Source of the DNA: Omphiscola glabra
Taxonomy: Eukaryota; Mollusca; Gastropoda; Lymnaeidae
Direction: 5' to 3'
DNA length: 64,000 nucleotides
Assembly (NCBI GenBank): GCA_964017045.1
Contig: OZ024794.1
Coordinates: 28,163,315-28,227,314 of the forward strand
Positions 25,842-52,049 of the stretch are shown piece after piece; within the stretch, counting starts at the first letter, position 1, and each line of letters opens with the position of its first letter. The notes beneath the pieces are model-generated. The model saw only the letters and a program-made list of their open reading frames with translations, had not been told where the DNA came from and searched no databases. Position numbers and translations under genes: made by a program.

Positions 25842-25953
25842 TTTTTTTTTTACCCTTCTTTCGCTGAGCAGCTATTCTTGCCAGTGTATTAGCATAGAAA
25901 ACCATTTGAGCTCGAATCACATCACATTCCAAAACTGGAATTCTTCTGAACAA
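25842..25953 (-). CDS. Array exon V62 (last)
   Basis: 112 nt. Starts LFRRIPVLECDVIRAQMVFY and ends in a Lys run (RKKGKKK). The donor AAA/gtaagt follows a ten-A run. Candidate selector at 26029-26042 (aagcccctttgtt). Confidence 0.85.
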
Positions 25954-26106
25954 CTGTTTAGTTTGTTTTTTTTTTAATAAAAAACTGTGCATTTTATGTT
26001 GCATCAAAGAAAAGCAACTTATATTATAAGCCCCTTTGTTAAAGTGGTATCAACAACAACCACATTTCTTGTGCTTATATTGATGAGGGAAATAGATAAA
26101 CTTTAC

Positions 26107-26218
26107 CTGCCAGTCTGGCATTAGTTCTCATCCAAGACACTCTTCTAGAAGAGCGAGCTCTGAAAATCTCTGCTACATGGTCAGAATCATACCGAAGGAT
26201 AGGTATGTGCAAAAACAA
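26107..26218 (-). CDS. Array exon V61
   Basis: 112 nt. LFLHIPILRYDSDHVAEIFR then ARSSRRVSWMRTNARLA. His replaces the usual Arg at position 4. Donor gtaaag. Candidate selector at 26272-26285 (atgcccttctttag). Close relative of V58. Confidence 0.87.
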
Positions 26219-26521
26219 CTGTCAAAAACAGCTAAAGATAGTCAAGTAATTCAATAAAATATAACTTTTAGATGCCCTTCTTTAGTACTGAGGTTTTTAA
26301 GTAGCAGTCTTTTAAGAGCAAATCTTTCTATATTTAATGGTCATAATAAACTGCCATAAATTATGACAGTGCACGACAAGTTTCCTTTCCATTTTCATGT
26401 GCTCAATGCAACAGAAACGCAGACTACACTTAATGCACCAAATGGAGGATTTTATTCAACAAAAAAAAAACAACTAAATAAACAGCTAGCCACTTTCTCA
26501 TGAGACATCAAGTAAACCTAC

Positions 26522-26627
26522 CTCTATGAAGACGATTTTTATATGACCTTCTTTCCTTTGCACGCTGCCACATTAGCAAAATAGTTTTCTCTTTTGCAAA
26601 TATCAGCAATGGAAGGCGAAAGAACAA
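26522..26627 (-). CDS. Array exon V60
   Basis: 106 nt. LFFRLPLLIFAKEKTILLMW then QRAKERRSYKNRLHR. Donor gtaggt. Candidate selector at 26698-26708 (ataaagagcca). Confidence 0.87.
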
Positions 26628-26794
26628 CTGTTTGCAAAGATGTTTGTTTTCAGTGTTATTCACCTCATATATAGGTGTTACAGAACATTTGTTTAAATAA
26701 AGAGCCAAATTTCCACTTCAGAATTTGGTGACAATTTCCTCTTATTCTTGGGGAAGAAATGTAACTTAATTGATATTTTAATCTGCTTTCATAC

Positions 26795-26906
26795 CTGTTA
26801 TCCTAAGATGTTCTCGCATTCTGTATCTCCAATTTTTTGACCTTATACTCATGATCAATGAAGTGCGCTCTATGTTAAATTTCAGTACTGGAATTCTTGT
26901 GACAAG
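26795..26906 (-). CDS. Array exon V59
   Basis: 112 nt. LVTRIPVLKFNIERTSLIMS then IRSKNWRYRMREHLRIT. Donor gtatga. Candidate selector at 26997-27014 (agagcccaggtgaaatg), which carries parts of both docking halves. Confidence 0.87.
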
Positions 26907-27148
26907 CTTTTTTATTAAAAAAAAAATTTAGGTGGTTCACTTTTAATGACCCAATTTAGGATATAGTCTATGCAACTAATAGAAACTTACATTTTTAGAG
27001 CCCAGGTGAAATGCATTAGGACTAAGACATGTTTTCCTTCTATTTAATGCCTACATTACTTTTGACGAATGATCCTAAAGGTACTAGAAATGTAAGAAAT
27101 CACACATTTCCATTTTAAAAATTAACTGAAAATGATAGCTCCTACTAC

Positions 27149-27260
27149 CTCTTAATCGAGTGTTTGTTCTCATCCGTGAAATTCTTCTAGCAGATCGAGC
27201 TCGAAAAATCTCTGCCACGCCATTTGAGTTGAATCGCAGAATAGGCAATCGTATAAACAA
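27149..27260 (-). CDS. Array exon V58
   Basis: 112 nt. LFIRLPILRFNSNGVAEIFR then ARSARRISRMRTNTRLR. Donor gtagta. Candidate selector at 27314-27332 (gaaaggtgctgcagtgaac), one of the longest matches to the GGTGCTGTGGTGAAC half. Confidence 0.88.
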
Positions 27261-27313
27261 CTAGTAGGCAAATTCAATTCATTATATTTAAATATATAAT
27301 TATCTAGCTTGTG

Positions 27314-27332
27314 AAAGGTGCTGCAGTGAACC
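27314..27332 (-). promoter_or_regulatory. Selector candidate for V58 (GGTGCTG class)
   Basis: The + strand aaggtgctgcagtgaacc matches ttggtgctgtggtgaaac with few changes over 18 positions. Confidence 0.72.
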
Positions 27333-27540
27333 AGAAAAGTAAAGCATCTTAGTAGAAACAGACCACTTTTTGAAGAAACAGAACAATAAAATATAATTAT
27401 CTTTCTGAAAAACTTTAAGTGAATGCTTGAAATTATTTTTAACCTATTTAAGTGTAAACCACACAATTGAAATAAAGAGTTTATTGCACTTTGAGTGAAG
27501 AGAAATGAGCTGAGTCAAGTAAGTTGTATGAAGAATTCTT

Positions 27541-27674
27541 GAGCCACAGGTAGAATGAACAATAGATTACAGCCATTAAAGCTTTTGTCACTGATTATAA
27601 GTACAGAGAGCCACAGGTAGAATGAACAATAGATTACAGCCATTAAAGCTTTTGTCACTGATTATAAGTACAGA
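27541..27674. repeat. 67-bp perfect tandem duplication
   Basis: Two adjacent copies begin gagccacaggtagaatgaac, at 27541 and 27608, in the V57-V58 intron. Their identity indicates a recent event. Confidence 0.95.
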
Positions 27675-27895
27675 GTCTTTCAAAAAGTATTTGGCCAAGT
27701 GATGACCAGGGAAAACTATTTTTTATATACTTTACCTAAGTCCTGTTTGATATATTTTAAGATAAAAAAAGGGGGGGGGGGGTGTTGTGGAGATGGTTTG
27801 CATACATTGTTGCACATAGAATCTTAATGGTATAGCTTATTAACCTTATAAATTTCAAATATTTTCAGTCACTAGTGCAACAAACACCTACCTAC

Positions 27896-28001
27896 CTTTC
27901 ATTTTTAGACGATTTTTATACCTTCTCTCATTTGCCCTCTGACTCATAACCAACTCAGTTCGCACCTTATCATATCGCAATAAGGGAAGATGCGAATATA
28001 A
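27896..28001 (-). CDS. Array exon V57
   Basis: 106 nt. LYSHLPLLRYDKVRTELVMS then QRANERRYKNRLKMK. His at position 4. Donor gtaggt (a second gtaggt follows 4 nt later; phase favours the first). Candidate selector at 28047-28061 (gagagcccttttgtt). Confidence 0.87.
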
Positions 28002-28548
28002 CTGTTCACAAAAATAAAGACTAATAAAGTTTAAATGAAAAAACTCGAGAGCCCTTTTGTTCTCTTATGGCCATTTTTTCTTATTTAAGTTGGACACAAA
28101 TGTCTACAACGAGTAATCACAATATTTAGCCATCCAATGTAAATAGCTTGTGGCTCTTATTTATATATATTTTATAAAAATAATTAAGTCTTGCTGTATT
28201 TATTTCATTTTACTGAATTCAACAATAAAACGTTAATTGGCAGTTACTAATATTGTATAAAATTCTTATATAGTGCAGAACTTTCATTTATAGAAGTTGG
28301 ATGAGACTAAATGGACAGGCCTTTCAAATTTAGGGCGAAAGTAAGGTGAACAGTAAAATGACAGTTGCCATAAGACAAAGGCTTCAGTTTATATACTTAG
28401 AGTAAATTTTTTAAACCAAAGAGACATTATCTTGAGTCACCACTGTACTTAAAAGAGAAAGATCATGTTTTCATAGAATTACTGCCTTTTTTTAACAAAG
28501 CTTTCATAGTGACAACTGTAAAATACTCTAGATGTTACATATCCTCAC

Positions 28549-28654
28549 CTTGAAAACGAAGACGTGCTTTATATCTTCTCTCCTTTGCTCTGTGACTCAT
28601 AATAATGGAAGCACGCTTCATATCATATCTCAATAGGGGGATGTGATAAATCAA
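28549..28654 (-). CDS. Array exon V56
   Basis: 106 nt. LIYHIPLLRYDMKRASIIMS then HRAKERRYKARLRFQ. Donor gtgagg. Candidate selector at 28700-28717 (tagagcccttctgattca). Confidence 0.88.
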
Positions 28655-28780
28655 CTGTATTGATAAACTCATACTTAAACTCATGCTGCATATCTAAACT
28701 AGAGCCCTTCTGATTCATTTTATATAAATTAAATGTTTTAATGCTTAGTTCTCTTGTCTAAAGCCAATTAATTTGCTTAC

Positions 28781-28886
28781 CTTTCTTCTTTACACCTTCC
28801 CAATACCGTCTTCCTTTAGCCCTCTTAATCATTAATGTAGAAGCCAACTCCATGTTATAACGCAGCAGTGGAAGGCGTGAAATCAA
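28781..28886 (-). CDS. Array exon V55
   Basis: 106 nt. LISRLPLLRYNMELASTLMI then KRAKGRRYWEGVKKK. Donor gtaagc. Candidate selector at 28940-28953 (caaagagcccttta). Confidence 0.88.
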
Positions 28887-29469
28887 CTACAATTTGTATT
28901 TTAACTGTATTTTTTATGCCATCTTTGATAAAATTATTCAAAGAGCCCTTTACAAATTTTCAGGATAAAACAAATCAAAACCAACAATAGGAAATGACAG
29001 TTTATAAGAGAGCAAGCAAAAACTAAGATATAACATAGCCCCCCCCCCCCCCCCCCAATATTTCAAAAGCTTAAAAAAAATTCTTGAAAATTACAGAGAG
29101 ATGGAGACCTTGACAATTACGGGAGGATGTAGACAATTCTGAACAAAATATTAAACTTAAACATAGTTTAAAAATTATACCATCCAAATAATGAAGCTTT
29201 CTATTCAAGTGTAAGTCATTTCGTACTGAAGATGATCACATGATCCAAAACAAATTAAATGGAATAAAAGAATGTTATTATGACAAATGTATTGGCCAAA
29301 AGACACATGAGATTAAAATCCTTGCATATGTCATAAGTTAACCAAAATATTTTTAAGGACACACCCAGAAAGCAAGAAAACTTGTATGACTAGATCAGAA
29401 CTCATCAGTTTTACTCATTCACAAATTAAACAAAATTTCTTTAACTTTAATAAGATTTTTAAGGCTCAC

Positions 29470-29575
29470 CTTTAGTCCGATAAGATTTTGTATTTTTCCT
29501 GTCCTGAGCATTTTTCACTAAATAGTAGCTTGCAATATCAACATTATACTTCAAGATGGGCACTCTAGAAAACAA
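29470..29575 (-). CDS. Array exon V54
   Basis: 106 nt. LFSRVPILKYNVDIASYYLV then KNAQDRKNTKSYRTK. Donor gtgagc. Candidate selector at 29847-29860 (ggctgtggtgaaca). Confidence 0.88.
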
Positions 29576-30147
29576 CTGCTCATCACAGTAGGAGGAACGT
29601 GATGTATATGATATTTAATATCATATGGACAATGAAGAGTATACAAGTTTCGCAAATTACACCCCCCAAAAAAAAAAAGAAAAAAAAATGGAACAAGCCA
29701 ACTGAATCTTTTACTTTAAAAAATGTAAATTATTCAGATGCCTGTACTATTCTATTGTTAGCCTTTTTGCAATAGAACAATACCAAATAATTATTAGGGG
29801 TGAGCAGTTTTTGTTACTTGTCCATTGGGAGTATCTCTTATTGTGTGGCTGTGGTGAACAATGAGTGTATTTTTAAGGATCTTCAACTAAAAAACAAGCC
29901 TTGAAAGTTTTGAAATACATTGTTATATCCTGAAAATACCACTATTTCAAATTTTAATTTTACCCCAATTAGTGTACACATCTCACTATTTGACTTAAAA
30001 CAAGAAAAGATGAATAATCAAGAAAATTATAGAAATAATTTTTCAACTGACTTACCTGTAAACTTAGAACATCACAGAGTGAACTCCTTAATAATAAATG
30101 CACCTCTAAAATAACTTAGAAGCAACCCAAAATGTACATATACAAAC

Positions 30148-30253
30148 CTGTGCATAAGCTCCACTTCTTATTTTTTCTGTCCATTGCATTTTTTGCTAAA
30201 CACACCACAACTCTTTTAAGCCCGAGAGCCAGAATTGGAATTCGGAAGATCAA
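30148..30253 (-). CDS. Array exon V53
   Basis: 106 nt. LIFRIPILALGLKRVVVCLA then KNAMDRKNKKWSLCT. Donor gtttgt, non-consensus at +3. Candidate selector at 30310-30323 (aacgtggtgaaaca). Confidence 0.8.
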
Positions 30254-30421
30254 CTACAGAATATTGATTATGCATTATGTGGGGTTAAATGGGAGTAATT
30301 ATCTGCACAAACGTGGTGAAACAATATATATTAATCAGTTCTCTTTTTCAACTACTCCCATTCAAAATCATGGCCCTTGAGATCTTTTTCAAGATATTTA
30401 ACGACTGAAGCGTGGACTCAC

Positions 30422-30539
30422 CTTGCTTGTTGCGTAGTGTGCGTGTCGTATTATTGTATTTCCTGTCATGAGAGTTCTTTGCTAAGCTGTTCTCAAGATG
30501 ACGTAGACGATACTTTAAAATTGGTATTCTTCTTATTAT
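30422..30539 (-). CDS. Array exon V52
   Basis: 118 nt. IIRRIPILKYRLRHLENSLA then KNSHDRKYNNTTRTLRNKQ. Donor gtgagt. No clear selector seen upstream. Confidence 0.85.
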
Positions 30540-30867
30540 CTGTTTATTTTTTGTTACACAACCATGAAAGTTAAATTTAATAATGACCCATCCATTTCAT
30601 TCACAAAAGATGAAATTAAAGATGTCTATGGTGAAACAAGTTTATGAACTTTTAACCCATTGTAAGTTAAATGAAATGACTACAAAATTATTCTGAAATA
30701 TGTGAGCCACATGTGGAAGGCCAAATACTCATCCCTTATTTTTCCATTCAAGAATTTTTTTAACAACATGAAAACAAACATTTAATGAATAATAAAAGTG
30801 AGTGCATATGATGGGAACAAGTTCCATCTAGACATGACTCTTAAAGTTAAAATAATATTTTACAAAC

Positions 30868-30979
30868 CTTGCAAACGTAACATCCGCTTAATATGTGCTT
30901 TACGGTCCTTGGCATTCTTGGCTAAATATTCACATAAAACTAACTGATTGTATCTCAACACTGGCAGCCTTGTAATCAT
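30868..30979 (-). CDS. Array exon V51
   Basis: 112 nt. MITRLPVLRYNQLVLCEYLA then KNAKDRKAHIKRMLRLQ. Donor gtttgt. Only a weak selector candidate at 31049-31065 (ggttgccgggtgaaacc). Confidence 0.8.
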
Positions 30980-31178
30980 CTGATAAATTGAGGGGAAATA
31001 ACCGAATGGACATACTTTTTATAAAATTTATAAAAACATCAAGTTAAAGGTTGCCGGGTGAAACCTGCCAATTTTTAAGAGTTATTTCAGAACAAAGTTA
31101 TATATTGAATGAAAGTAGCCAAACACCATAAGCAAGTCATGGAGATAAATATACATGAAAGAGTTAGGTGTAACCTAC

Positions 31179-31293
31179 CTTGGTTGCGTTGCCCTTTTTT
31201 TCTACGAATTAAATAGGACCTGTCATGCACCGTTTTATTTAAATAAAAATCTGTTCTCTTATCAAATCTCAATAGAGGTAGACGGAAGTAAAG
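31179..31293 (-). CDS. Array exon V50
   Basis: 115 nt. LYFRLPLLRFDKRTDFYLNK then TVHDRSYLIRRKKGQRNQ. Donor gtaggt. No clear selector seen. Confidence 0.85.
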
Positions 31294-31407
31294 CTGTGAA
31301 GATTGTGCGCTTATGTTAATCAGTATTCTTTGATAGATGAAAATGGCAACAGTGGCGAAACAAACAAAATTCCTGCTCGAGAACTTTGCATTGTAAGGTC
31401 ACAGTAT

Positions 31408-31689
31408 GACCTTTGAAGAAATGTTTCAAATTTTCAGACCAGATAGTTAAAGATTATTAAGAATTCAAAAATGCCTCAAATAATATGGAAGAAATATTAA
31501 TTTAGAGATGACAATATTTTTATCAAATGTCTCTGTAACAATGACCTTTGAATGAATGTTTCAAATTTTTCAGACTAGTCAGATAGTTAAAGATTATTAA
31601 GAATTCAAAAATGCCACAAAGAATATGGAAGAAATATTAAGTTAGAGATAAGAATATTTTTATTAAATGCCTCTGTAACCATCTCTGAC
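31408..31689. repeat. 143-bp tandem duplication next to V49
   Basis: Two copies begin tgacctttgaa, at 31408 and 31551, and share taaagattattaagaattca. A third partial copy (ctgaccttt) coincides with the donor side of V49, so the duplicated unit seems to have reached the exon edge. Confidence 0.85.
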
Positions 31690-31792
31690 CTTTAAGTCTT
31701 CGATTGTAGTTATTCCTCCAAGTGGCTCGAGCCAAAAAAATTTCACTGAAGTATGTGTAATCATACCTCAAAATTGGTATCCGCCGAAAAAG
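31690..31792 (-). CDS. Array exon V49
   Basis: 103 nt. LFRRIPILRYDYTYFSEIFL then ARATWRNNYNRRLK. Donor gtcaga, unusual at +3. Candidate selector at 31887-31908 (taaagaagccttttggattt). Confidence 0.8.
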
Positions 31793-32025
31793 CTGATGAA
31801 GCAAAGTATTAGATAAAACAAATATAATTTATCATACCACGATGTCCTCAGAGCAAAACTTTTTCCAACTTCAGTTTAGAATTGCAATAAAGAAGCCTTT
31901 TGGATTTTACAATGCTGAGATTTTGTAGGTTGATTGTGTGATTTTAACTGTAACTTTTTACAATTTAACCTATTTATTTAAAACCACTGACGGCGCACTT
32001 TTAAAAAAGAAATGAATAACCATAC

Positions 32026-32137
32026 CTTTACTTCCCATCTTCTTTCGGTGGCGATAATGAATTTCAGCAGAGCGTGCTCTAAAAATAAGGCAGACCCTTT
32101 TCCCATCATGACATAGCAATGGTAGGCGAGAAAACAG
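32026..32137 (-). CDS. Array exon V48
   Basis: 112 nt. LFSRLPLLCHDGKRVCLIFR then ARSAEIHYRHRKKMGSK. Donor gtatgg; an earlier gtaaag would give the wrong phase. Candidate selector at 32237-32250 (ataaagagcccata). Confidence 0.85.
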
Positions 32138-32352
32138 CTGTTAATTACACAATATTTTTCAAATACAGATTCCTTGGTTTTTACCCCACTTTTATATGCA
32201 TTATAAACCAAGAATTTAAAAAATCAACTGAAACAGAATAAAGAGCCCATAAAACTTAATTGGACAAGACTTGGAGAAAAAATAAAACCAGAAATGAGCC
32301 AAACTATAAAAAAGTATAATACATCTGAATTTTCCACTCTATAAGCACTTAC

Positions 32353-32455
32353 CTTGCCTTTTCTTGGCTTCATATCTACGAGAAGTAGTATTGTAAGATA
32401 ACAGATGGGAGACTCGAGGCAAATTATACCTGAATAGGGGCATCCTTTTTAAAAG
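32353..32455 (-). CDS. Array exon V47
   Basis: 103 nt. LLKRMPLFRYNLPRVSHLLS then YNTTSRRYEAKKRQ. Donor gtaagt. Partial selector candidate near 32510 (ttagtgctggttgg). Confidence 0.87.
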
Positions 32456-32624
32456 CTAGAGATGAAGTATACCATCAAATTAGAACCAAAATTAAAATAA
32501 CATTTGAGATTAGTGCTGGTTGGAAACAAAATTTTGACCAAGTAACAAAGTAAGAGGTACTCTAGAAGCTACAAAGTTGGGTCTTGTGTTGAAACAATTT
32601 AAGTAGCGGTACTGATGAACTTAC

Positions 32625-32733
32625 CTCGTCTCAATGACCTCTTGGCTTCATAGCGAATCTCAGCACATCGGTTGCTGAAAGTAAGCTTCAAGCGAGCCAA
32701 GTTTTTACCCAGTATAGGAATGCAGGACAAAAG
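32625..32733 (-). CDS. Array exon V46
   Basis: 109 nt. LLSCIPILGKNLARLKLTFS then NRCAEIRYEAKRSLRR. Cys at position 4. Donor gtaagt. Candidate selector at 32813-32827 (attgctgtggggatg). Confidence 0.87.
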
Positions 32734-32956
32734 CTGTATGTAGTGCATGAAGACATTTGTAAATATCTATCAATAGTGTGTTTTGAAAAGCTTTAGTTTC
32801 AGAATAGGATAATTGCTGTGGGGATGACTGGAAGCTAATCATCTACATCAAATAAAATTATCTAGGAAACAAAGGCTGCCTCTACAAGAAGAAAAAACCA
32901 CGTTCCTGAATTCGACCTGAAGTAACATTAAATTTTTTTTTTTAAAAAGGGGTTAC

Positions 32957-33065
32957 CTTTCATTCTGGCTTTTCTGCTTTTATACCGGATGTCTGCAGTT
33001 CTTAAAGCAAAAGTAGACTCAAGTCTCAACATGTCTCGACATAAGATAGGACAACGTGAAACCAA
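32957..33065 (-). CDS. Array exon V45
   Basis: 109 nt. LVSRCPILCRDMLRLESTFA then LRTADIRYKSRKARMK. Donor gtaacc. No clear selector; the region upstream was enlarged by the foldback insertion at 33827-34268. Confidence 0.85.
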
Positions 33066-33826
33066 CTGTACAAATGTGATTTAAAAATCCCATGTGTCTT
33101 AAGGTGTATTTTAAATAGCATCATTGTGCAATAGAAACTAAAAAATTCTGATCATAATATCAAAATAAAATTCCCTAATTTTTTCTCTTTCCTGGGTGAA
33201 GTAGCACGTGTGCATTATAATTTTAAATATTCTTTGATTCAAAATATGAACATTAAAGCAATGTTCATTAAAAATGTGTGATTTCAAAAATCTCAACTTC
33301 ATTAAAATTCTTGTAAGCATTTTAGAAAGTTTTTTACCTGATGACAGGTTTTAACAATTGGGAAAAGAATATTTAAGTAGCAAAATAATACGCTGACATA
33401 TAAGTAGACCCCAAAATTTTTTTGGTGCTCTTGGTGATATTTAAAAACAAGCTTATCTTGAACTCCAGGTTCCTTGTAATTTTTTTTTAAAATGTCTGTG
33501 TGCAAATGCTATCTTGTGAAATGCTAGTAAAAAACAAGTAATTCTTGTTAGATTTTAATGATTTTTACATATTATTACCGGAACAACATTGACACTTTGT
33601 CTTCTGTTTTATTATCATGTGCCCATGAGAACAGCGTACACATTGAGGGATCATGTGTTAAGCTATGACCAAGATAATCTTGTTCCTTAACATATTTTGA
33701 AACAAAGGAATTTCATTACAACAGACAGGATATTTTTTGAGAATAGAGAACAAGATATGTTTTTTTTATTGATGCATGTGCTCATTCAATAAAGGCATGG
33801 TAAGGCACCTGTCCACATTTTTATAA

Positions 33827-34268
33827 GGCTGCACCTATAGGTACACGGGTACCAGAATTGAGAGTTTGGGATGAAAAAACGATTTAAAATATTATTGTTG
33901 GGTTTGTAAGACCAAATGAGGTATCAAATGAAAGATAATTGAATCTACTATACGTTTGTAAACTTAATTCTTCATTTTAACTAAAATAAACTACTACAAA
34001 TGACATCCGAATAGCCTTAGTCAAAATGGACCCGGACACGCAGCGCCGCCATTCGCACCCGGGTACCATTAAGCTCAATGCTATTCGGATGTCATTTGTG
34101 GTAGTTTATTTGAGTAAAACTGAAGAATTAACATTTCAAAGGTATAGTACATTCAATTATCTTTCATTTGATACCTCATTTGGTCTTACAAACCCAACAA
34201 TAATATTTTATATCATTTTTTAATCCCAACCTCTCAATTCTGGTACCCGTTTACCTATAGCCACTTCG
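33827..34268. mobile_element. Foldback element with 9-bp target duplication, copy 1
   Basis: It is a near-perfect palindrome: arms of about 190 bp around a loop near 34020-34080. The left arm includes gaggtatcaaatgaaagata and the right arm its complement. It is flanked by TTTTTATAA on both sides (33818-33826, 34269-34277). The 9-bp duplication points to a Mutator-like mechanism (inference). It sits between array exons V45 and V44. Confidence 0.88.
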
Positions 34269-34291
34269 TTTTTATAACAAGACAAACCTAC

Positions 34292-34424
34292 CAGGTCTGG
34301 GGTACTTAGCTGAAAGACCAAGCTTGCGGGCCTGCCTATCCTGATACCTGAACTCTGCAGCTCTAGCACAAAAATAAGATTCCAACTGAGGGAGAACCTT
34401 AATCAATGGAATTCGATTTATAAG
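34292..34424 (-). CDS. Array exon V44
   Basis: 133 nt, among the longest. LINRIPLIKVLPQLESYFCA then RAAEFRYQDRQARKLGLSAK and YPRP. Donor gtaggt, only 15 nt from the foldback target duplication. Candidate selector at 34479-34497 (ataaagagccaccttcttt). Confidence 0.86.
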
Positions 34425-35456: not shown

Positions 35457-35596
35457 CTAAGAAAAATTTTGTAAAAGAATTGTTTTTCATATTTTAATGA
35501 ACGTAAATGTTTCTATAGGTGTTCTTTAATGCTGTGGTAAATAGAGCAAATAAAGATGCCCAATACAATTCAATGAGCTCTTCTTAATGGACTAAC

Positions 35597-43282: not shown

Positions 43283-43388
43283 TTCTTAATCTGAATATAC
43301 GCATTGACCTCCTGGATTTACTATTGACATAGAGTAAATGGGCTGCAGTAAGAGGATCCCACTTTAATATTGGTATGCGATGAAGAAG
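43283..43388 (-). CDS. Array exon V23
   Basis: 106 nt. LLHRIPILKWDPLTAAHLLY then VNSKSRRSMRIFRLR. Donor gtaagt. No clear selector. Confidence 0.87.
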
Positions 43389-43699
43389 CTGAGAAATGTC
43401 AGGAAAGTTTTACATAGTTAGATTGGTATAAAGCTTTCACCTTTTCAAATTATGCCAGCTTGGTGCAATGAGAAATCAAAGTTCAAATTCTTGTCCAATT
43501 GAGTATAAAATGTCATGCACTGTAATTACTACCAATTCACTAAATTTGAAGACATAATTTACTTTTGCAAATTTAAGAACAACAGGCAAATATTAATGAA
43601 AGCATAAAACTCTTAAATGCTGGGAAAATACAAAGCTAATGGAACCTTATTTTATTGTCCGTGAATATTGAGGCTTGAGAAACTGATTTCATAACTTAC

Positions 43700-43814
43700 T
43701 CTTCTGAGCTCTAAGACGATGAGCCCTCATGTTGACTCTTGAGCGACAAATATGTAAGAAGTGTCCCACTACTCTTTCAAGGTTGCTACTTAAGTAAGGC
43801 ATTCTAAAGCACAG
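43700..43814 (-). CDS. Array exon V22
   Basis: 115 nt. LCFRMPYLSSNLERVVGHFL then HICRSRVNMRAHRLRAQK. Donor gtaagt. Candidate selector at 43861-43878 (ttaaagagaccttctggg). Confidence 0.87.
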
Positions 43815-44261
43815 CTAGGAACAACAAACAAAACAGTTAAACTTCAGCATTTTAGGGGTTTTAAAGAGACCTTCTGGGCGCATGTGGTTTTCAAGGTTAG
43901 ATTTTCAGTGAAATATTAAATGTCAGAAAGGAATAGAAATCAACTTTGCTCAATGGAAGACTTAATGCAAACAAGTCATTAAAAAATGTTTAAAACTGTA
44001 AATTGCTATGTCGTCCACAAATTAACTGTGCAAACAGCTTGTTATATGACGGAACAATAAGAGTTACAACACAATAATCTGGAGTGAGAGAGAAATGTTT
44101 TCAGAAGAGTTTCAGAAAATGGTTTTAGCTATTTCAAGAATTGATATGACTGAAAAGAAAGATGAAGGAAGAAGTAGCAATTAATTATATTTGCCTCACA
44201 GCAGAGCTTGAACAAAAAAAAATGAACCTTTGCTTAGCTAAAACCTAATTTACCAACTTAC

Positions 44262-44367
44262 TTTTATTACGCCAGTACCTCATAGAGTTTTTAGACATAC
44301 ATCTTGCATAAAACAAATATTTTGATCGGTCCTCAGCTCTTTTTAAGATGGGTAGACGACTGAAAAA
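44262..44367 (-). CDS. Array exon V21
   Basis: 106 nt. FFSRLPILKRAEDRSKYLFY then ARCMSKNSMRYWRNK. Donor gtaagt. Candidate selector at 44434-44447 (agggctgtggtaaa). Confidence 0.87.
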
Positions 44368-44741
44368 CTGTCAACATTTTTAAGACAAACTTTTTTGGTC
44401 AACAAATTATTTTGATAGTTCTTTATGTATATAAGGGCTGTGGTAAATATGGGACAATTTTATAACCCTCAGTTGTTTTTGAGCACCATGAGGACCGATA
44501 AATTATATCCAATTTAACTTATTCCTAAAATTGTTTATTATTTAGGTGATGAATATGATAAATCAAAGAGATTTACTCAAATTTTGTCACAGAATAACAG
44601 GCGCAAATAATCTCACAACAAAGCAAATGGTGTAATTGAACTGAGACAGAAAATTTTGAAGAAACAAAAACCATGATAAAATTAGGCAATAATTTTTCTC
44701 TACTGCTGTTCTTATTTACAATCAGAGAATTCATTACTCAC

Positions 44742-44850
44742 TGCGCCTCTGGTTCATTCTCATCATGCCAATCCTAGACATGTTGTTATGACAAAATTTT
44801 TTTGTCACGCGGATTTTATCCCAGCGTAGCATTGGCATCCGCTGAAACAG
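44742..44850 (-). CDS. Array exon V20
   Basis: 109 nt. LFQRMPMLRWDKIRVTKKFC then HNNMSRIGMMRMNQRR. Donor gtgagt. Candidate selector pieces at 44878 (aagagccagtga) and 44901-44910 (caggtgaaac). Confidence 0.87.
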
Positions 44851-45257
44851 CTGATTTGAATATATAACTATAACAGCAAGAGCCAGTGAATTTTTCAAAG
44901 CAGGTGAAACAAAAATATATCTATCTGACTGATTAGACCATCTTGAAGAAGATATTTAATTACCACACTAGAAACAATAACAAATAAGACTAAAAGGAAA
45001 GAAACAACAGAACACCAATGGAAAAATCTCCCTAAATGAACTTAACCAAACATTTGTTAACAGTCCTCAAAAAGAACAGTTGTGATATTCCATACAGCTC
45101 CTCAACATGAGCATTCACTTCAACAACTTCTAAAATAATAAAAGTAGAAAAGCTTTGTCCGAAAGAAATTGAGAATGTGGACGTTCACAATCAATCTTTC
45201 TTGTTAAAATTTTTGTAAAAAATACCAGCTCAACACTGATGAAGATACACCACCTAC

Positions 45258-45369
45258 CACCAGTCTTTCTTTTAGCCCTCCAATAGACTATTCTAGATTT
45301 GGAGTTAGCATAAAGAACTTCAGCAGCCCTTTCCATGTGATGTGATATAACAGGAATTCGGCGGACCAG
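45258..45369 (-). CDS. Array exon V19
   Basis: 112 nt. LVRRIPVISHHMERAAEVLY then ANSKSRIVYWRAKRKTG. Of three nested GT sites, the gtaggt donor at the right phase was chosen. No clear selector. Confidence 0.83.
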
Positions 45370-45584
45370 CTGTAAGAGACCAAATTCAGATTCAACCTTT
45401 AAAATTCCCTTTAACAAACAAAAAAAAATTCCTGATAGCCTGACAAAAAAAAAAAAAAAAGCAACATGGTTCCATTCTGATCGTAATCCACACAATAGAA
45501 AGATCAAACTTATGAGGTCATAAGAAATGAATCAACAAGAGTTTTTAAAAAAACAGATTTATCTCTGGTAAAAGATAAACTTAC

Positions 45585-45696
45585 TTTTTTTAAAATAAAT
45601 TCTCTTGTTGTAATGGATTCTAGCATAGCCATTAATGTATAAGTATTCAGAAGCACGCTCTGGCTCAACTTGTACAATTGGTATTCTTCTCCACAA
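45585..45696 (-). CDS. Array exon V18
   Basis: 112 nt. LWRRIPIVQVEPERASEYLY then INGYARIHYNKRIYFKK. Donor gtaagt. Candidate selector at 45793-45806 (tgtgctgtgatgac). Confidence 0.87.
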
Positions 45697-45910
45697 CTGA
45701 ATTACATTTGATATTTTAAAAAAATGTCAACATGCAGATCCTTCAACTAAAATTAGGAACTACTGTAATCCACAGCCCTACTTTTTATCTGTATGTGCTG
45801 TGATGACCTATTCAAACCAACAATGGAAAGTAGCAGACCACTTTTAAAACCATCCTTAGTGGAACAATGTTACATTTAAAATATCTATGGCATAAAGCAT
45901 CGCAACTTAC

Positions 45911-46016
45911 TTTGGATTTTCTTGTTACGCATAAACAACTTGTTCCTACAATTTGTATATGTAACACTCTCAGTCCTTTTTTTATCCACAAGTAAAACTG
46001 GCAGTCGATAAAATAA
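45911..46016 (-). CDS. Array exon V17
   Basis: 106 nt. LFYRLPVLLVDKKRTESVTY then TNCRNKLFMRNKKIQ. Donor gtaagt. Partial selector candidate at 46074-46086 (actttggtgcagg). Confidence 0.87.
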
Positions 46017-46184
46017 CTACCATGCAAAAATGAGACAAAAAATAGATTCAATTTCCATTAAAGCTAGAGGAGTGACTTTGGTGCAGGAGTGCTTTAAATT
46101 AAGATTGGATCATAGTGGGATTAAAACGGACTTACTGGATTTAGTATTCCCAAATATTTATCTTCTAATTTTATTTTAACTCAC

Positions 46185-46305
46185 TTTTTAACTGCACTGC
46201 CATTGTCCTAGATCTTCGCATGTGTAACTTTATCCTAGAGTTATGATAGAAAATATCCGTAGCCCTGACCATGTCATATGCCAAATAGGGCATCCTCAAG
46301 ATTAG
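46185..46305 (-). CDS. Array exon V16
   Basis: 121 nt. LILRMPYLAYDMVRATDIFY then HNSRIKLHMRRSRTMAVQLK. Donor gtgagt. Candidate selector at 46436-46453 (attggtgcgatgtgaaa). Confidence 0.87.
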
Positions 46306-46560
46306 CTAAGATCCAGCAGGTTACCACAGTGGAAAAAAATGCAATACAAGGTATTAACTACATCCTTACTGAAGAAAATGACTACCACCTAAGAATAAAA
46401 CTTTTTAATTGAAAAAGATGAAAAGCCTCATATACATTGGTGCGATGTGAAATTATACAGAAGTCGTTTCAAGTCCATTAAGAATTTCTTGAATATTACT
46501 AAAAGAATTGAGTTTGTGTTGAAACAAAAACTTTCATAAATCAGATACAAGTGAACTTAC

Positions 46561-46675
46561 TTGTAACATTAGTCGATCGTCCTTTCCTCATGTAAATTTT
46601 CTGATAACAATTTTTATAGAAGTGTTCTCTTGTATATGCAGCTTTGAATTTCAGAATAGGTATTCGGGAAAATAA
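46561..46675 (-). CDS. Array exon V15
   Basis: 115 nt. LFSRIPILKFKAAYTREHFY then KNCYQKIYMRKGRSTNVT. Donor gtaagt. Candidate selector at 46734-46744 (aaaagagccca). Confidence 0.88.
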
Positions 46676-46846
46676 CTGGTAGAAATTAAACCTTTTTAAC
46701 TAGTAATAGTTACAAATATTTTGTGCTAATTGAAAAAGAGCCCAAATAAAGTTGGAAAGGGGGGTGCATATTAGACATTCACTTTAGGAAAGTGAAATTA
46801 AAATACTAAAAGTTTCCTATTTGGAGTCAGATAAGCAAACACTTAC

Positions 46847-46964
46847 CTTCATTTACAGCTTTCTTCCTTGCTATTCTTCTACGTAATTTTTGATAGCTAT
46901 TGGTATAAAAATACTCCTCAATATGTCCGGCATGAAGCTTCAACAAAGGCATGCGCAGGAACAA
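46847..46964 (-). CDS. Array exon V14
   Basis: 118 nt. LFLRMPLLKLHAGHIEEYFY then TNSYQKLRRRIARKKAVNE. Donor gtaagt. Candidate selector at 47020-47039 (gaagagcaccattttgattc). Confidence 0.88.
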
Positions 46965-47088
46965 CTGATTTATACAAAAACCAGGATATTACTAAATAAG
47001 ATTTTGAACCAATTTTGTTGAAGAGCACCATTTTGATTCTAGACTTTACAAGAAACCCATGAGAAAAAATCATTTTATGAAATCTTAC

Positions 47089-47206
47089 CTGACTGTGGAG
47101 ATTTTATTTTCTTATTCCGTTTATAATTCTTTTGATAAGCAGTCATGTAAAGTGCTTGCTCGGCACGCTGCATATTACTTTTTAAAAAAGGAAGTCGCAT
47201 TAACAT
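47089..47206 (-). CDS. Array exon V13
   Basis: 118 nt. MLMRLPFLKSNMQRAEQALY then MTAYQKNYKRNKKIKSPQS. Donor gtaaga. Candidate selector at 47270-47280 (taaagagcatt). Confidence 0.87.
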
Positions 47207-47521
47207 CTAGGACAAAAAAGTGGAACCACTGATGGTATTTTAAAAAAATGTTTGTCAATTATTAGGATTTAAAGAGCATTAATGATTTTTAACTCGAATT
47301 ACACCAAGTTTACCTTTTGTTTTATTAAACTTTACACCAACTTCAGGAGGGAAAAATCATAACCACGAATTATGTGAACAAAGATACTTCACTTTCCAAA
47401 TCGTTAATTGTGTAAAATAAAACAGGCAAAGCAGTCTCAGCACTTCATAATTAGCTCACATGCAATATTAATCTTCTTTAAAAAAAATTATGGGTTTCTT
47501 TTTTGCACAGAAATACTATAC

Positions 47522-47627
47522 CATGATATCTTATCCTAGCACGAGACAATCTCTTCATAATGTTCATGTAGACTATCTCCTTGCAGCGACTTGATTGAAG
47601 ACGTAGAACAGGCAGACGTCTAAATAA
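47522..47627 (-). CDS. Array exon V12
   Basis: 106 nt. LFRRLPVLRLQSSRCKEIVY then MNIMKRLSRARIRYH. Donor gtatag. Candidate selector pieces at 47674-47680 (aaagagc) and 47696-47715 (ctcttttgttttgatgtttg). Sister of V11. Confidence 0.85.
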
Positions 47628-47800
47628 CTACAAAAAGTGTTTCACAATATTTTATGTGATATACTAGTGAAATAAAGAGCAACGGAACAGTATCCTCTTT
47701 TGTTTTGATGTTTGGATTTATGAAAGCTACAATGTGCTATTCAATAGAACAAATAGATTCTAATGAGTGGAAACAAAGATAAGGGAGAAGAATACTGTAC

Positions 47801-47900
47801 CATACTGTCTAGCTCGAGACACCCTCATCATACCATTCTTGTAGACTACCTCACTGCAACGTACTGCCTCAAAACGAAGCACAGGCAGTCGTAGAAATAA
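47801..47900 (-). CDS. Array exon V11
   Basis: 100 nt. LFLRLPVLRFEAVRCSEVVY then KNGMMRVSRARQY. Donor gtacag. Weak selector candidate at 47955-47972 (acttttgatttgatgtgc). Confidence 0.85.
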
Positions 47901-48080
47901 CTATAAAAGCACATAACAAATTATGTAATGTCTGTATTAGGATAACTGATTTCCACTTTTGATTTGATGTGCTTAAAATAACTTACTGGATTTTCTAAAT
48001 CTCAGTGCATTTTGAAAATATCGGCACACAGTTAATTCAGAATTACTAAATTGATTTTCACATACTTAGCTGATGTTTAC

Positions 48081-48180
48081 TTTGATCTCGTTTCCTATAC
48101 ATCCTTCGCATACTATTTATATAGAACATTTCCACCACTTTGTCAAATCTTGCCACAAGAACTGGCATTCGTTGAAAAAG
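48081..48180 (-). CDS. Array exon V10
   Basis: 100 nt. LFQRMPVLVARFDKVVEMFY then INSMRRMYRKRDQ. Donor gtaaac. Candidate selector at 48217-48230 (tagagcccttctga). Confidence 0.87.
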
Positions 48181-48443
48181 CTGAGAGATGAACAAAAGAT
48201 AAACTTTAACATAAATTAGAGCCCTTCTGACTTGTAGTTAACACCAATATTCTATTTTAAAAAGAAGATTCAGTTTAAAAACCAAGTTAGGCTATTTGGA
48301 ATCCGTTTATTAACTATAACAAACAATAAATGATCTCTAAATAGTGAAAGCAAGAAACAAAAACCAACAGGTTCTAGAAAGGAAAAGAACACTTTTGTTC
48401 TGAAAATGACTTCAAAAGAGAAAGAAAAACTAGGCCAACTCAC

Positions 48444-48527
48444 CCTTTTGATGTCTGATTTTGCAAATGAATTGCATTCATAAAAATCCTGGTCACAGGA
48501 GGAAAATGTACTTCAAAAGGGTTGATG
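48444..48527 (-). pseudogene. Array exon V9, degenerate
   Basis: Only the C-terminal half is recognisable (VHFPPVTRIFMNAIHLQNQT before a gtgagt donor). The LFxRxP half is lost, the acceptor is poor and the phase is wrong. A selector-like site persists at 48591-48600 (aactgtggtg). Confidence 0.65.
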
Positions 48528-48600
48528 CTTTTAATTTCTACTACACCATATGTAATGCTATAAAACTTACAAACTGATAGAACTGTGGTGTTCATTCAAA

Positions 48601-49760
48601 TTATTATTAATATCGAAGCAACACAATTTTTTTAAAATAAACTGTTCAAGTTAAATGTCATGGTTTTTCATGCCATATTTTTCAGGTAATACAATTTGAA
48701 GTGCAAAAATGACTCCTGGTGACAATAGAAAAACAGAAAATGAGTCATGGTCTGGCATCTTTTATTTTCTTTCTGAGTTGGAAACAAAGTTTTTTTCCAA
48801 TCAATGTAAGTGTTAGGAACTGTAATAACATCAAACTAAGATTTGAAGTATGAGTTCTATTTTAGCTCCCTCTAAATTTTTCTGAAACTATTTCTTCATT
48901 CAAAATTCCAATTAAAGAATTACAATAACAGTTCTTAAACCGCAGTTTCAATTAAATTCCAATTGAAGAATTATATTAACAATTCTTAACGAGTGTGGTT
49001 TCTGCTATTTTCAGGGCCCACTTATTATTACTAGCTCTTAATTCAAATTACTGGTGATATATAAACTGAAAGTTCAGGGATCATTCTTTAAACCCAAAGG
49101 TCAGAAAAGGAAATAAATTGTGAGATATATAAGCAACATTAATAATCTGATAGTTTTTTAGGGTACCATTTTACTACAAAAAACAACAATAAAATTTCAC
49201 AAAATGAACAGTTAGCATTGCACCTTACAACTTAGAGGATGCCATTGAATTTCAAACCAAGAAAGCCTTATGAATTCTGTACACTAATTGTACCTTAGGC
49301 AGCTTTCTTTAAAATAAAGCAAATGCTCTATCCAAAATGTATTATGTCATTGGATGTCAATAAATTCTATCTACTACCTAATAATTCTTACTTAAAACCA
49401 GTAACAACTTAAGAGCGTAATGACAAGCTGAAATGAGGAGTTTGAAGGCTACTTGAATTCTTGTCACATACACACATCTCACAATCAAATCGAAATATCT
49501 GAAATGCTGTATCCAACTGCCAAATACGGATTGCAGTAGTGACTTTACCAGAGATATATAGCTAATTTTTGTTGGTTTTATAGTTGTGCATATGTAGGGT
49601 ACAAAGATTATCTCAACTGAAGTTTAAGCTTTTTTTTATAGATAAGGTAATAGATGCTTATAGATGATACAATACGCCAGTTGATTTCTGTAGCTCATCA
49701 TGTAGGTAGACTCTAAGAGGACGCTGAGCTTTTTAAGAAAACTTGGATATGAATACTTAC
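48601..49760 (-). other. 1.1-kb array interval without exon
   Basis: No array exon or other feature could be supported. It includes a short direct repeat of aattccaattaaagaatta type near 48905-48975. Confidence 0.6.
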
Positions 49761-49872
49761 CCCTAATGTGAGCTCTCAAACGCCTTTTTTGCATTTTCCG
49801 AGTGGCGTTAATATAGAAAGTCTCCAAAGCCCTTTTTGGATGGTATGTGAGGGTAGGCATACGAAGAAATAG
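49761..49872 (-). CDS. Array exon V8
   Basis: 112 nt. LFLRMPTLTYHPKRALETFY then INATRKMQKRRLRAHIR, G. Donor gtaagt. Candidate selector at 50074-50086 (aactgtggtgaaa). Confidence 0.88.
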
Positions 49873-50126
49873 CTGGTGTGTTGAGAGTAATTTTGTATGA
49901 AAGGACAATAGCGTAAAATCTTTTTTTATATGTCAAAACAAAGTCTCTGTCACCAGAAAATTGGTCATAGATGCCTTTGGCACAAACGGTAGTTTAAAAA
50001 AAATTGCAATCCCTTCCATCGCACACATATACAAGGAATAAATTAGATTTTTAACTTTTCTCCGATAATCTAAAACTGTGGTGAAAGTACCCAGCAGATA
50101 GTTTTCACAGGGGAAGGAACACTCAC

Positions 50127-50244
50127 CTTTGCTTATTATCCCCCCTTTTCTACGCCATCTTCTGGAGTTTCGACTAGCATTCTCGTAGAAAATGTTCTCC
50201 ACAGTAATACAATTCATCCGCAACAGAGGCATACGCCAAAACAG
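50127..50244 (-). CDS. Array exon V7
   Basis: 118 nt. LFWRMPLLRMNCITVENIFY then ENASRNSRRWRRKGGIISK. Donor gtgagt. No clear selector. Confidence 0.87.
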
Positions 50245-50380
50245 CTGATGCATTTGATAGAAAAACACTTTTCTTACTACTACTTCGCATAGAGCAATGC
50301 TGATTGAGATATTGTATGTGATCCATTACAAATTAATAAATAATGCCATCATTGGGGGGCCATGAAAAGCATATACTTAC

Positions 50381-50492
50381 AAATAATTAAAGACTTTTTC
50401 CTCATCCTCTGCACTTGCTTCATGGTATTAATATACATGACAGCCTGAGTGCGTCCAACATTATAGCGCAAAAGGGGAATTCTTGAAAACAG
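50381..50492 (-). CDS. Array exon V6
   Basis: 112 nt. LFSRIPLLRYNVGRTQAVMY then INTMKQVQRMRKKSLII. Donor gtaagt. Candidate selector at 50599-50616 (cagtgctgtggggatga). Confidence 0.88.
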
Positions 50493-50669
50493 CTAAGACA
50501 GAAACAGTGGAGAACAAGAATTTTTGTTGCACCAGGCTATACCTGCGCTACTTTTCCATCTGCAACCATGAAATAAGTGTCTTCAAGTATCTAAGTATCA
50601 GTGCTGTGGGGATGATATTGATACCACAGGAAAATTCTTTTAGAATAATCTGTATAATTTGAAACTCAC

Positions 50670-50781
50670 TGTAATCCTTAAATCTACATCTCCTCAATGA
50701 CATCTTCTTCATACTGTTTGCATAGAAAATAGCTTCAACACGAAGAGGTTCATGAGCCAGCAGCGGCAGCCTCAGAAACAA
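50670..50781 (-). CDS. Array exon V5
   Basis: 112 nt. LFLRLPLLAHEPLRVEAIFY then ANSMKKMSLRRCRFKDY. Donor gtgagt. Candidate selector at 50908-50918 (gagcccttttc). Confidence 0.88.
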
Positions 50782-50955
50782 CTGAATTATAGAGGCACAA
50801 GAAACAAAATAGGCAAATCGGAATCGAAGAAATTACAACAAATGTAACTGCATGAAGTTAATTTATTTTTCACTACAAGATAAAACTGTGCAATGAAACA
50901 TGAAAATGAGCCCTTTTCTCTTTGGTAACAGGCTGGGGATAAGATATTCACTTAC

Positions 50956-51064
50956 TTCTATATCTGCATCTTCTTAAAGAAATTTTTGCCATGCAGTTTT
51001 TGTAGACATACTTTTCCAAAGAACTTGAACTCTGACACCCAAGCAAAGGCATGCGATGTAAAAG
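50956..51064 (-). CDS. Array exon V4
   Basis: 109 nt. LLHRMPLLGCQSSSSLEKYV then YKNCMAKISLRRCRYR. Donor gtaagt. Only a weak selector candidate near 51113 (ttaaagaacatattttgtg). Confidence 0.87.
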
Positions 51065-51190
51065 CTGCCACAAACAGAAATTGTACAATTTTTGCTATGA
51101 ATTTTTGTAATTTAAAGAACATATTTTGTGCCTCATTTTAGTACAGTACTTCCCTTGGACAGAAACTATTTTGGCATAAAGACTACTTAC

Positions 51191-51296
51191 TTTTATCTCT
51201 GCACCTTCTGTAAGATAACTTAGCTTGTGAGTTTTTTGAAAAATATAATCGCGTACGTTGATAGTCCAACTGCATAATTGGCATCCTCAATAGAAT
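51191..51296 (-). CDS. Array exon V3 (first intact)
   Basis: 106 nt. ILLRMPIMQLDYQRTRLYFS then KNSQAKLSYRRCRDK. Donor gtaagt. Candidate selector at 51346-51360 (aagagcccttctgt). Confidence 0.87.
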
Positions 51297-51807
51297 CTGG
51301 CATGAGATCATGCAAACTATTTAAAGAAAAAAATATCATTATGTAAAAGAGCCCTTCTGTGCAAGAACAATAAACTGCTGCAAATTCCATAACTGTTTTT
51401 GTTTTTACAATTTTCAAGACAGGAACCAATACACCACACACCTTGCATGAAATCCAAATAAAAGAACTTAACTGGTACACAAAAATTAACCAGTTGGGAA
51501 AATCACGGTAAGTAAACTTGAATTTTCTTCATGCGAGACATATTATAGAAATAGTTACATTCGCACGTTTTAAAAAATTTCATTACTATGTAAAACCGTT
51601 ATTTATTTTAAAAATCCAAAGACTTTTTTGGTACGCAAATTTATATTTTAAAAAACACAACAAAAACAGAAAAGTAACTAAAATTTATACACAGCCCAAT
51701 AATAGAGATTTAGAGACCTTTTTTGGCAGGAGGGGCAACCTTAATCCTAAAGGTCAAGTCAAGGTTTCGCAAAACGTAAATGACTTTATGAAGAAAAAAA
51801 AACTTAC

Positions 51808-51922
51808 TTTTTCTTCCTGTGCTGGTCTTGCACCTGTAGGCCATCTTTGCTTTCGCGTTACAATACAGGTTTTCAGATTGTCGCATTGTACTCCCGCGAA
51901 GCAACGGTATTCGTCAAACTAG
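51808..51922 (-). pseudogene. Array exon V2 with in-frame stop
   Basis: 115 nt (3n+1) with good acceptor (aaatcag) and donor (gtaagt), but the third codon is TGA: LV-stop-RIPLLRGSTMRQSENLYC then NAKAKMAYRCKTSTGRK. Everything after the stop fits the family, so this is either one recent nonsense change or a retained exon that would terminate the protein early. Confidence 0.8.
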
Positions 51923-51992
51923 CTGATTTACCAGGTGATCTCAAGTGAGAAATGAAGGATCGGGCACCTGTTACTCCTTAAAATAAACTTAC

Positions 51993-52049
51993 CTTTTGAT
52001 GCCTATATCATGCCCTCCTTCAACAATTTTTAAAGCAATACTTATTCCT
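51993..52049 (-). pseudogene. Array exon V1, degenerate remnant
   Basis: A gtaagt donor is preceded by a recognisable but stop-containing C-terminal half (KYCFKNC-stop-RRA). The RxP half has gone. It is the array member nearest to the docking candidate. Confidence 0.6.

What the first reader, a model, noticed from the sequence alone, without database searches (positions are those of the whole stretch)
25842..52049. About 62-copy tandem exon cluster, likely spliced one at a time, in an unknown gene
The - strand carries 62 homologous mini-exons of about 100-130 nt (58 open), each with its own acceptor and donor, between two small constant exons and two constant 3' exons. Dscam exon clusters are the known comparison for such numbers, but the peptide here is not an immunoglobulin domain. 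Each copy encodes a short segment starting LFxRxP(L/I)L with a basic second half, so choice among 58 would swap one surface of an otherwise constant protein. The family is not one I can name, and the arrangement seems undescribed.
Basis: partly seen in the sequence, partly recalled or inferred. Interest (0 to 1): 0.97.

Follow-up and report, generated by a model that had tools for sequence, protein, structure and literature searches.

The report
Snail gene with 58 swappable exons
A snail gene carries 58 interchangeable copies of one short exon, and a single stretch of the gene is complementary to sequences in front of most of them, so each message likely takes up exactly one copy and the gene would make 58 versions of a protein predicted to bind DNA.

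Summary
On the - strand, 58 open homologous exons lie between constant exons A-B and C-D; one more copy is broken. All start at an in-phase AG; the best donor is phase 1 in 56 of 58, so one copy keeps the reading frame and two never do. The genome is close to Lymnaea stagnalis. Orthologues in six snail genera join one copy between B and C; four species have database clusters of 27-49 member proteins. New: one element in the B-V1 intron (52462-52515) is the reverse complement of short sequences that recur 40-100 nt upstream of most variants; it ranks first of 35,984 windows in 134 kb. This is the docking-site/selector layout of Dscam1 exon 6, in an unrelated gene. The N-terminus is shared with paralogues that end in alternative zinc-finger exons, like insect lola, and every variant is strongly basic and modelled as a helix. 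Best reading: a Dscam-like splicing switch that likely selects one of 58 DNA-recognition helices. RNA pairing and DNA binding are untested, 13 introns lack a clear selector, and no RNA from this species was seen. Ten literature searches showed no description of the gene.

The parts
56621..56694 (-). Constant exon A (starts phase 2, ends phase 0): LTRAQQEELEMYYRKGTDQHLTFL
   Evidence: AG/GT borders; same peptide in Lymnaea stagnalis P0016
55083..55163 (-). Constant exon B (phase 0-0): RNMREAHAMYPFTGKRDKELFDKALAE
   Evidence: B or a diverged form of it in 14 of 147 proteins scanned
52462..52515 (-). Predicted docking element in the B-V1 intron
   Evidence: Its reverse complement shares 8-mers (3 or more G/C) with 37 of 58 V-upstream introns; 13,088 control windows mean 3.66, maximum 24; first of 35,984 windows in 134 kb, array left out
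51808..51922 (-). Broken V copy at the 5' end of the array (in-frame TGA at codon 3, donor GTAAGT)
   Evidence: sequence
25842..51296 (-). Array of 58 open variable exons V (phase 0 to phase 1)
   Evidence: 51191-51296, 50956-51064, 50670-50781, 50381-50492, 50127-50244, 49761-49872, 48066-48180, 47801-47900, 47522-47627, 47089-47206, 46847-46964, 46561-46675, 46185-46305, 45911-46016, 45585-45696, 45258-45369, 44742-44850, 44262-44367, 43700-43814, 43283-43388, 42940-43042, 42565-42676, 41828-41957, 41614-41725, 41319-41430, 41047-41158, 40855-40960, 40525-40657, 40249-40378, 40001-40127, 38616-38712, 37701-37803, 36580-36679, 36256-36352, 36106-36205, 35842-35959, 35597-35696, 35333-35456, 35010-35115, 34292-34424, 32957-33065, 32625-32733, 32353-32455, 32026-32137, 31690-31792, 31179-31293, 30868-30979, 30422-30539, 30148-30253, 29470-29575, 28781-28886, 28549-28654, 27896-28001, 27149-27260, 26795-26906, 26522-26627, 26107-26218, 25842-25953
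51346..51356 (-). Example predicted selector (AAGGGCTCTTT) upstream of V51296
   Evidence: best site for every intron
35762..35774 (-). Example predicted selector of the second class (TTTCACCACAGCA) upstream of V35696
24118..24273 (-). Constant exon C (starts phase 1 after V): QFKSPGQGPRGQQYGRQ...
   Evidence: 52 of 52 residues as in Lymnaea stagnalis
23641..23978 (-). Constant last exon D with stop codon: GDSFLQGPGEEGYDYQ...DDEDDI
63591..63865 (-). Predicted alternative terminal exon, HTH-like by eye, own stop, same acceptor phase as exon A
   Evidence: no Pfam match; no isoform carrying it among the 120 rows listed of 280 hits
63150..63385 (-). Second predicted alternative terminal exon of the same kind, own stop, same acceptor phase
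   Evidence: 40% identical to the first over 57 aa; no Pfam match

Best explanation
This is likely a mutually exclusive exon cluster: 58 tandem homologous exons lie between constant exons B and C, and one element in the B-V1 intron, complementary to sequences upstream of most of them, is predicted to pair with one at a time so that each mRNA would carry exactly one variant, swapping the basic helix of a protein module that is predicted to bind DNA. Shown here: the array, its acceptors and donor phases, the frame logic, the antisense match of one intronic element to the V-upstream introns at a preferred distance, dN below dS in the closest copies, and single-V proteins in related snails. Inferred: that dock and selectors pair in the pre-mRNA and enforce the choice; that out-of-frame products are discarded; that the A+B+V module, which takes the place of zinc-finger modules in this gene family, contacts DNA with the variable helix, so that the variant chosen sets the target sequence.
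For: 58/58 acceptors in phase 0, 56/58 best donors in phase 1. With those borders one V keeps the frame to the normal stop in 58/58, none gives a frameshift, two V 0/1,653, three V 0/2,000 sampled, four V 11/2,000. Of 14 proteins with exon B, 10 continue into one V; 13 proteins join one V to C. Of 15 foreign V, Lymnaea's equals V51296 (35/35) and 12 more have a best window copy at 41-89% identity; the window copies are 30% identical to each other at the median. Dock: all 13 8-mers (3 or more G/C) that recur in 6 or more introns lie in its reverse complement, 14 of 17 at 5 or more, 16 of 36 at 4 or more; 37/58 introns match it, its sense strand 5/58, 13,088 control windows mean 3.66, maximum 24; best site ends 40-100 nt before the acceptor in 49/58, 16.5 expected; median duplex energy -28.9 against a background of -16.7. 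Five closest copy pairs: dN 0.20-0.33, dS 0.72-2.48. V net charge +4 to +10, mean +7. Two C2H2 exons lie after the same constant donor in a fitting phase; paralogues end in C2H2 and other zinc-finger modules.
Against: No RNA data from this species. Thirteen of 58 introns have no selector by the 7-mer rule; selectors fall in two classes for the two halves of the dock (23 and 27 introns, only 5 both), so two could pair at once. With 30 shuffles per intron only 32 of 58 reach z below -2. Without the G/C filter the 8-mer count is far less telling: 49/58 for the dock, 26/58 for its sense strand, control windows up to 45. The recurring 8-mers overlap and make up two motifs, not 13 independent ones. 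Conservation of the dock in other species could not be tested. One gene model (Bulinus P0002) joins two V tails in series; two proteins skip V and lose the frame (P0012, P0023), two end without V (P0013, P0014). A+B+V has no convincing Pfam or PDB relative and no fold match, so DNA binding rests on position, charge and family context.
Confidence: 0.8

Rival explanations
1. The cluster is spliced one at a time, but without docking/selector pairing: frame loss and mRNA decay remove wrong products, and the upstream motifs are protein-binding sites or leftovers of exon duplication.
For: Wrong numbers of V lose the frame; 13 introns lack a clear selector; duplicated introns share sequence anyway.
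Against: Shared ancestry alone does not explain that the widely shared 8-mers are antisense to one element in the upstream intron, with 5/58 sense against 37/58 antisense matches.
Confidence: 0.12
2. The swapped segment is a protein- or RNA-contact surface (or only a nuclear-localisation tail), not a DNA-recognition helix.
For: No DNA-binding family is recognised by sequence or fold; a basic helix could also bind RNA or act in nuclear import.
Against: It takes the position held by zinc-finger modules in the family; 58 different versions, with dN below dS in the closest pairs, are more than a localisation tail needs.
Confidence: 0.3
3. A tandem array of decaying duplicated exons, mostly unused; only a few V are functional.
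For: One broken copy (51922); some weak donors (for example 47900, 47627).
Against: A stop-masked scan found only one copy with a stop beside 58 open ones; dN below dS in the closest pairs; matches of single V in other snails and protein clusters of 33-49 members in three species.
Confidence: 0.04

Closest known systems
Dscam1 exon 6 cluster of insects
   Same: Tandem homologous exons chosen one at a time; docking site in the intron after the upstream constant exon; selectors upstream of each variant (passages of PMC8042237, PMC6071210, PMC11802352)
   Different: Dscam1 is an Ig-superfamily receptor with 48 exon-6 variants in Drosophila; here 58 variants, no Ig match, a mollusc, and a putative DNA-binding protein
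lola and mod(mdg4) of Drosophila
   Same: One constant N-terminal part joined to many alternative C-terminal DNA-binding exons (lola: at least 20 isoforms, passages of PMC5127561; mod(mdg4) recalled)
   Different: No BTB match here; one of the alternatives is itself an internal 58-way cluster rather than a single terminal exon
Other docking/selector genes: 14-3-3 zeta, Mhc, MRP1 and srp
   Same: RNA pairing that selects among duplicated exons (PMC6071210 passages)
   Different: Docking sites of 14-3-3 zeta, Mhc and MRP1 lie downstream of the cluster, and srp is explained by two sets of complementary sequences (same passages)

Membership tests
Docking/selector mutually exclusive exon cluster (Dscam1 exon 6 type) | Tandem homologous exons between constant exons, each with its own splice sites | tested here: met
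   58 of 58 have acceptor and a phase-1 donor
Docking/selector mutually exclusive exon cluster (Dscam1 exon 6 type) | Exactly one variant per mRNA | tested here: inconclusive
   Frame logic asks for it and 10 of 14 proteins with exon B show it; no RNA from this species; P0002 is a counter-example model
Docking/selector mutually exclusive exon cluster (Dscam1 exon 6 type) | Single docking site in the intron after the upstream constant exon | tested here: met
   52462-52515, first of 35,984 windows; by sequence complementarity only
Docking/selector mutually exclusive exon cluster (Dscam1 exon 6 type) | Complementary selector upstream of every variant | tested here: inconclusive
   45 of 58 by 7-mers to either half, 37 of 58 by 8-mers; 13 not recognised
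Docking/selector mutually exclusive exon cluster (Dscam1 exon 6 type) | Docking site conserved between species; pairing required for choice | not testable with these tools
   No DNA of related snails and no bench data at hand
Dscam gene family | Ig and fibronectin III domains | tested here: not met
   No such family among Pfam hits up to E 10 for window exons A-D, P0011, P0001, P0014, P0015 or 22 A+B+V members
lola/mod(mdg4)-type BTB factors | Constant N-terminus joined to alternative DNA-binding ends | tested here: inconclusive
   Paralogues show it (for example P0034 and P0043 of one Babylonia gene); for this gene the four alternative ends are predicted and none was found as an isoform in the rows listed
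lola/mod(mdg4)-type BTB factors | N-terminal BTB domain | tested here: not met
   No BTB match up to E 10 in P0011, P0014, P0015, which hold the N-terminus
Homeodomain / known HTH families | Recognisable sequence profile and fold | tested here: inconclusive
   No homeodomain among Pfam hits of 22 members; models show 4-5 helices, no PDB match

The most novel reading that the evidence does not exclude
A transcription-factor counterpart of Dscam: one snail gene carries at least 58 alternative DNA-recognition helices (plus four other DNA-binding ends), and a one-dock, many-selectors RNA switch picks one per transcript, giving cells a large combinatorial code of regulators from a single locus. The switch arose independently of insect Dscam.
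Probability: 0.45. Interest if true: 0.97.

Novelty: new variant of a known kind. Interest (0 to 1): 0.9.

Why it matters
The 48 variants of Drosophila Dscam1 exon 6 (PMC11802352 passages) are the best-known extreme; this cluster has 58, in another phylum and another protein class. If the pairing is real, docking/selector control has evolved at least twice in the same layout, which bears on the proposal that partial duplication of a stem-loop generates it (PMC6071210 passages). If the swapped helix sets DNA specificity, one gene could encode dozens of regulators. Lymnaea, Aplysia and Biomphalaria are laboratory animals (recalled), so this can be tested at once.
Full report
OBSERVATION. A profile grown from motif hits found 54 copies at E<0.01, all on the - strand. 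Three weaker copies (41725, 41430, 31293) share the exact borders. A border-pattern scan of both strands added one, 34424 (3.6 bits by profile), which matches the V of the related protein P0011 at 24/36. That makes 58 open copies. With stops masked, one broken copy appeared (51922, in-frame TGA). All 58 start directly after AG. With approximate donor weights of my own, GT and GC allowed, the best donor is in phase 1 in 56 of 58; in 47900 and 41725 it is second best. Exon ends were then set at the phase-1 donor, so lengths (97-133 nt) are 3n+1 by that choice. Two donors are GC. Introns between copies are 50-1,580 nt, median 215.

FRAME LOGIC. Exon B ends in phase 0, C begins in phase 1. With the borders above, one V leads to the normal stop in 58 of 58 cases. 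No V gives a frameshift; two V in array order fail in 1,653 of 1,653 pairs; three V fail in 2,000 of 2,000 samples; four V pass in 11 of 2,000. Frame 0 is open in 58 of 58 copies, the other two sense frames in 6 and 1. PMC6071210 (passages) notes that frame alone cannot police clusters of more than three exons because lengths can add up to a multiple of three; here stops in the other frames nearly close that gap.

RELATIVES. The spliced peptide found homologues in heterobranch gastropods (15 proteins at E<=1); a longer, chimeric query found full-length orthologues: Lymnaea stagnalis P0016, Physella P0018 (49 members in its 90% cluster), Biomphalaria P0020 (43), Aplysia P0021 (33), Bradybaena P0017 (27) and P0019 (9) (120 of 247 hits listed). 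I saw one representative per cluster, so the counts suggest, but do not show, one V per isoform. Of 147 proteins returned in three searches, 14 contain exon B or a diverged form: 10 continue into one V, 2 run into C out of frame (P0012, and P0023, named isoform X43), 2 end without V (P0013, P0014). Thirteen proteins join one V to C; P0006 and P0008 begin at C and P0010 could not be classed. P0022 (545 aa) comes from a 2,047-base contig, too short for an unspliced gene of this size, so it is most simply a spliced transcript with one V. Bulinus P0002 joins two V tails and is the one counter-example. Of 15 foreign V compared with the 58, Lymnaea's is identical to V51296 (35/35), Biomphalaria's P0020 matches V49872 (33/37), and 11 others have a best copy at 41-76%; P0009 is nearly tied between V26218 and V27260, and P0004 and P0026 (12/35, 12/36) have no clear partner. 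The window copies are 30% identical to each other at the median. In the five closest pairs dN is 0.20-0.33 and dS 0.72-2.48: old copies, held by selection.

WHOLE GENE. The window is G000:C1:28163315-28227314 of a 744.8-Mb assembly. Seventy kilobases upstream were read. Constant exon 1 lies at 69416-70196 in continued window coordinates (97.7% identical to L. stagnalis over 261 aa), exon 2 at 69034-69183. A scan of the stretch between exon 2 and exon A for open frames that begin in the acceptor phase of A, the only phase scanned, showed four convincing ones with their own stops: two C2H2 exons (start 65006 and 64537; zf-C2H2 above the curated cut-off) and two HTH-like exons (63865 and 63385) without family match. 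They are predicted alternative ends. A head-to-head paralogue starts at 108691 and is followed by an array of C2H2 exons at 125.7-133.3 kb. In other gastropods paralogues with the same N-terminus end mostly in C2H2 fingers and in some rows in PF04500 or PF02892 (FLYWCH and BED zinc fingers; names recalled), with isoform numbers up to X36. So A-B-V-C-D appears to take the place of a DNA-binding end.

DOCK AND SELECTORS. A count of 8-mers in the V-upstream introns gave, beside T-rich words, GGCTCTTT, AAGGGCTC, TTTCACCA and TTCACCAC. These are in the reverse complement of one element in the B-V1 intron. Sliding 45-base windows over both flanking introns (250 and 102 windows), the one at 52517 had a median duplex energy of -28.9 with the 57 V-V introns (last 700 nt); background median -16.7, sd 3.0; the next best was -25.6, a G run in the last intron. 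With 8-mers of at least 3 G/C, 37 of 58 introns (last 400 nt) match the reverse complement of 52462-52515, 5 of 58 its sense strand; 13,088 control windows have mean 3.66, maximum 24; with 10-mers 22 of 58, controls mean 0.47, maximum 6. Without the G/C filter the contrast is small: 49 of 58, sense 26, control windows up to 45. Over 35,984 windows in 134 kb, both strands, the array left out, the dock ranks first. All 13 filtered 8-mers found in six or more introns lie in its reverse complement, 14 of 17 in five or more, 16 of 36 in four or more; they overlap and form two motifs. Shared ancestry of the introns would not predict the antisense match. The best site ends 40-100 nt before the acceptor in 49 of 58 introns; 16.5 expected. 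Against it: per-intron energy z is below -2 in only 32 of 58, 13 introns have no 7-mer site, and sites divide into two classes (23 for one half of the dock, 27 for the other, 5 both), so two introns could pair at once.

PROTEIN. Every V is basic (net +4 to +10, mean +7), A and B are near neutral. AlphaFold models of P0016 and P0001 make A+B+V a helical module whose last, long helix is V (pLDDT about 90 in V; most of the rest disordered). No convincing Pfam, PDB-sequence or PDB-fold relative was found. DNA binding is therefore inferred from position, charge and family.

KNOWN SYSTEMS. In Dscam1 exon 6 the docking site lies in the intron between constant exon 5 and exon 6.1 and the 48 selectors lie upstream of each variant (PMC8042237 passages; PMC11802352 passages). 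In 14-3-3 zeta, Mhc and MRP1 docking sites lie downstream (PMC6071210 passages). lola has at least 20 isoforms with one N-terminus and different zinc-finger ends (PMC5127561 passages). The present gene combines both plans without being a member of either family. Ten literature searches showed no paper on this gene in the rows listed; several held more papers than were listed, and the library holds open-licence papers only.

VERDICT. Real, held by selection, very likely spliced one at a time (about 0.95), docking/selector control likely (about 0.85), swapped DNA recognition plausible (about 0.65).

Noticed in passing
L008:4705-5487 and L010 (about 1724-9345); continued window coordinates 108691-109473 and 125710-133331: Head-to-head paralogue on the + strand with the same N-terminal domain and a tandem array of C2H2 exons.
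   Followed up: partly
L004, about 240-1020 (continued coordinates about 64.2-65.0 kb): Two C2H2 exons just beyond the window end, predicted alternative last exons of the gene.
   Followed up: partly
window 40525-40657 and 40001-40127: Two V exons of one neighbourhood use GC instead of GT donors with otherwise strong consensus.
   Followed up: no
window 27541-27675 and 31406-31679: Tandem duplications (67 bases, 100%; 140 bases, 89%) between V exons: the array still changes.
   Followed up: no
window 8153-8676: 27-base minisatellite, 19.4 copies, open in two + frames.
   Followed up: no
window 1488-2342, + strand: 285-residue ORF with a weak QRICH1-domain match (E 0.024, below cut-off).
   Followed up: no
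window 15393-16337, + strand: 315-residue open frame with repeated RRMSxDMSxR-like units, no Pfam match.
   Followed up: no
P0012 and P0023 (related snails): Isoforms that skip all V and read C out of frame; could be a regulated off-state or noise.
   Followed up: no
P0026 (462 aa, unnamed source): A more distant A-B-V relative, diverged in A and B, that may come from outside the heterobranch snails, so the module may be older.
   Followed up: no
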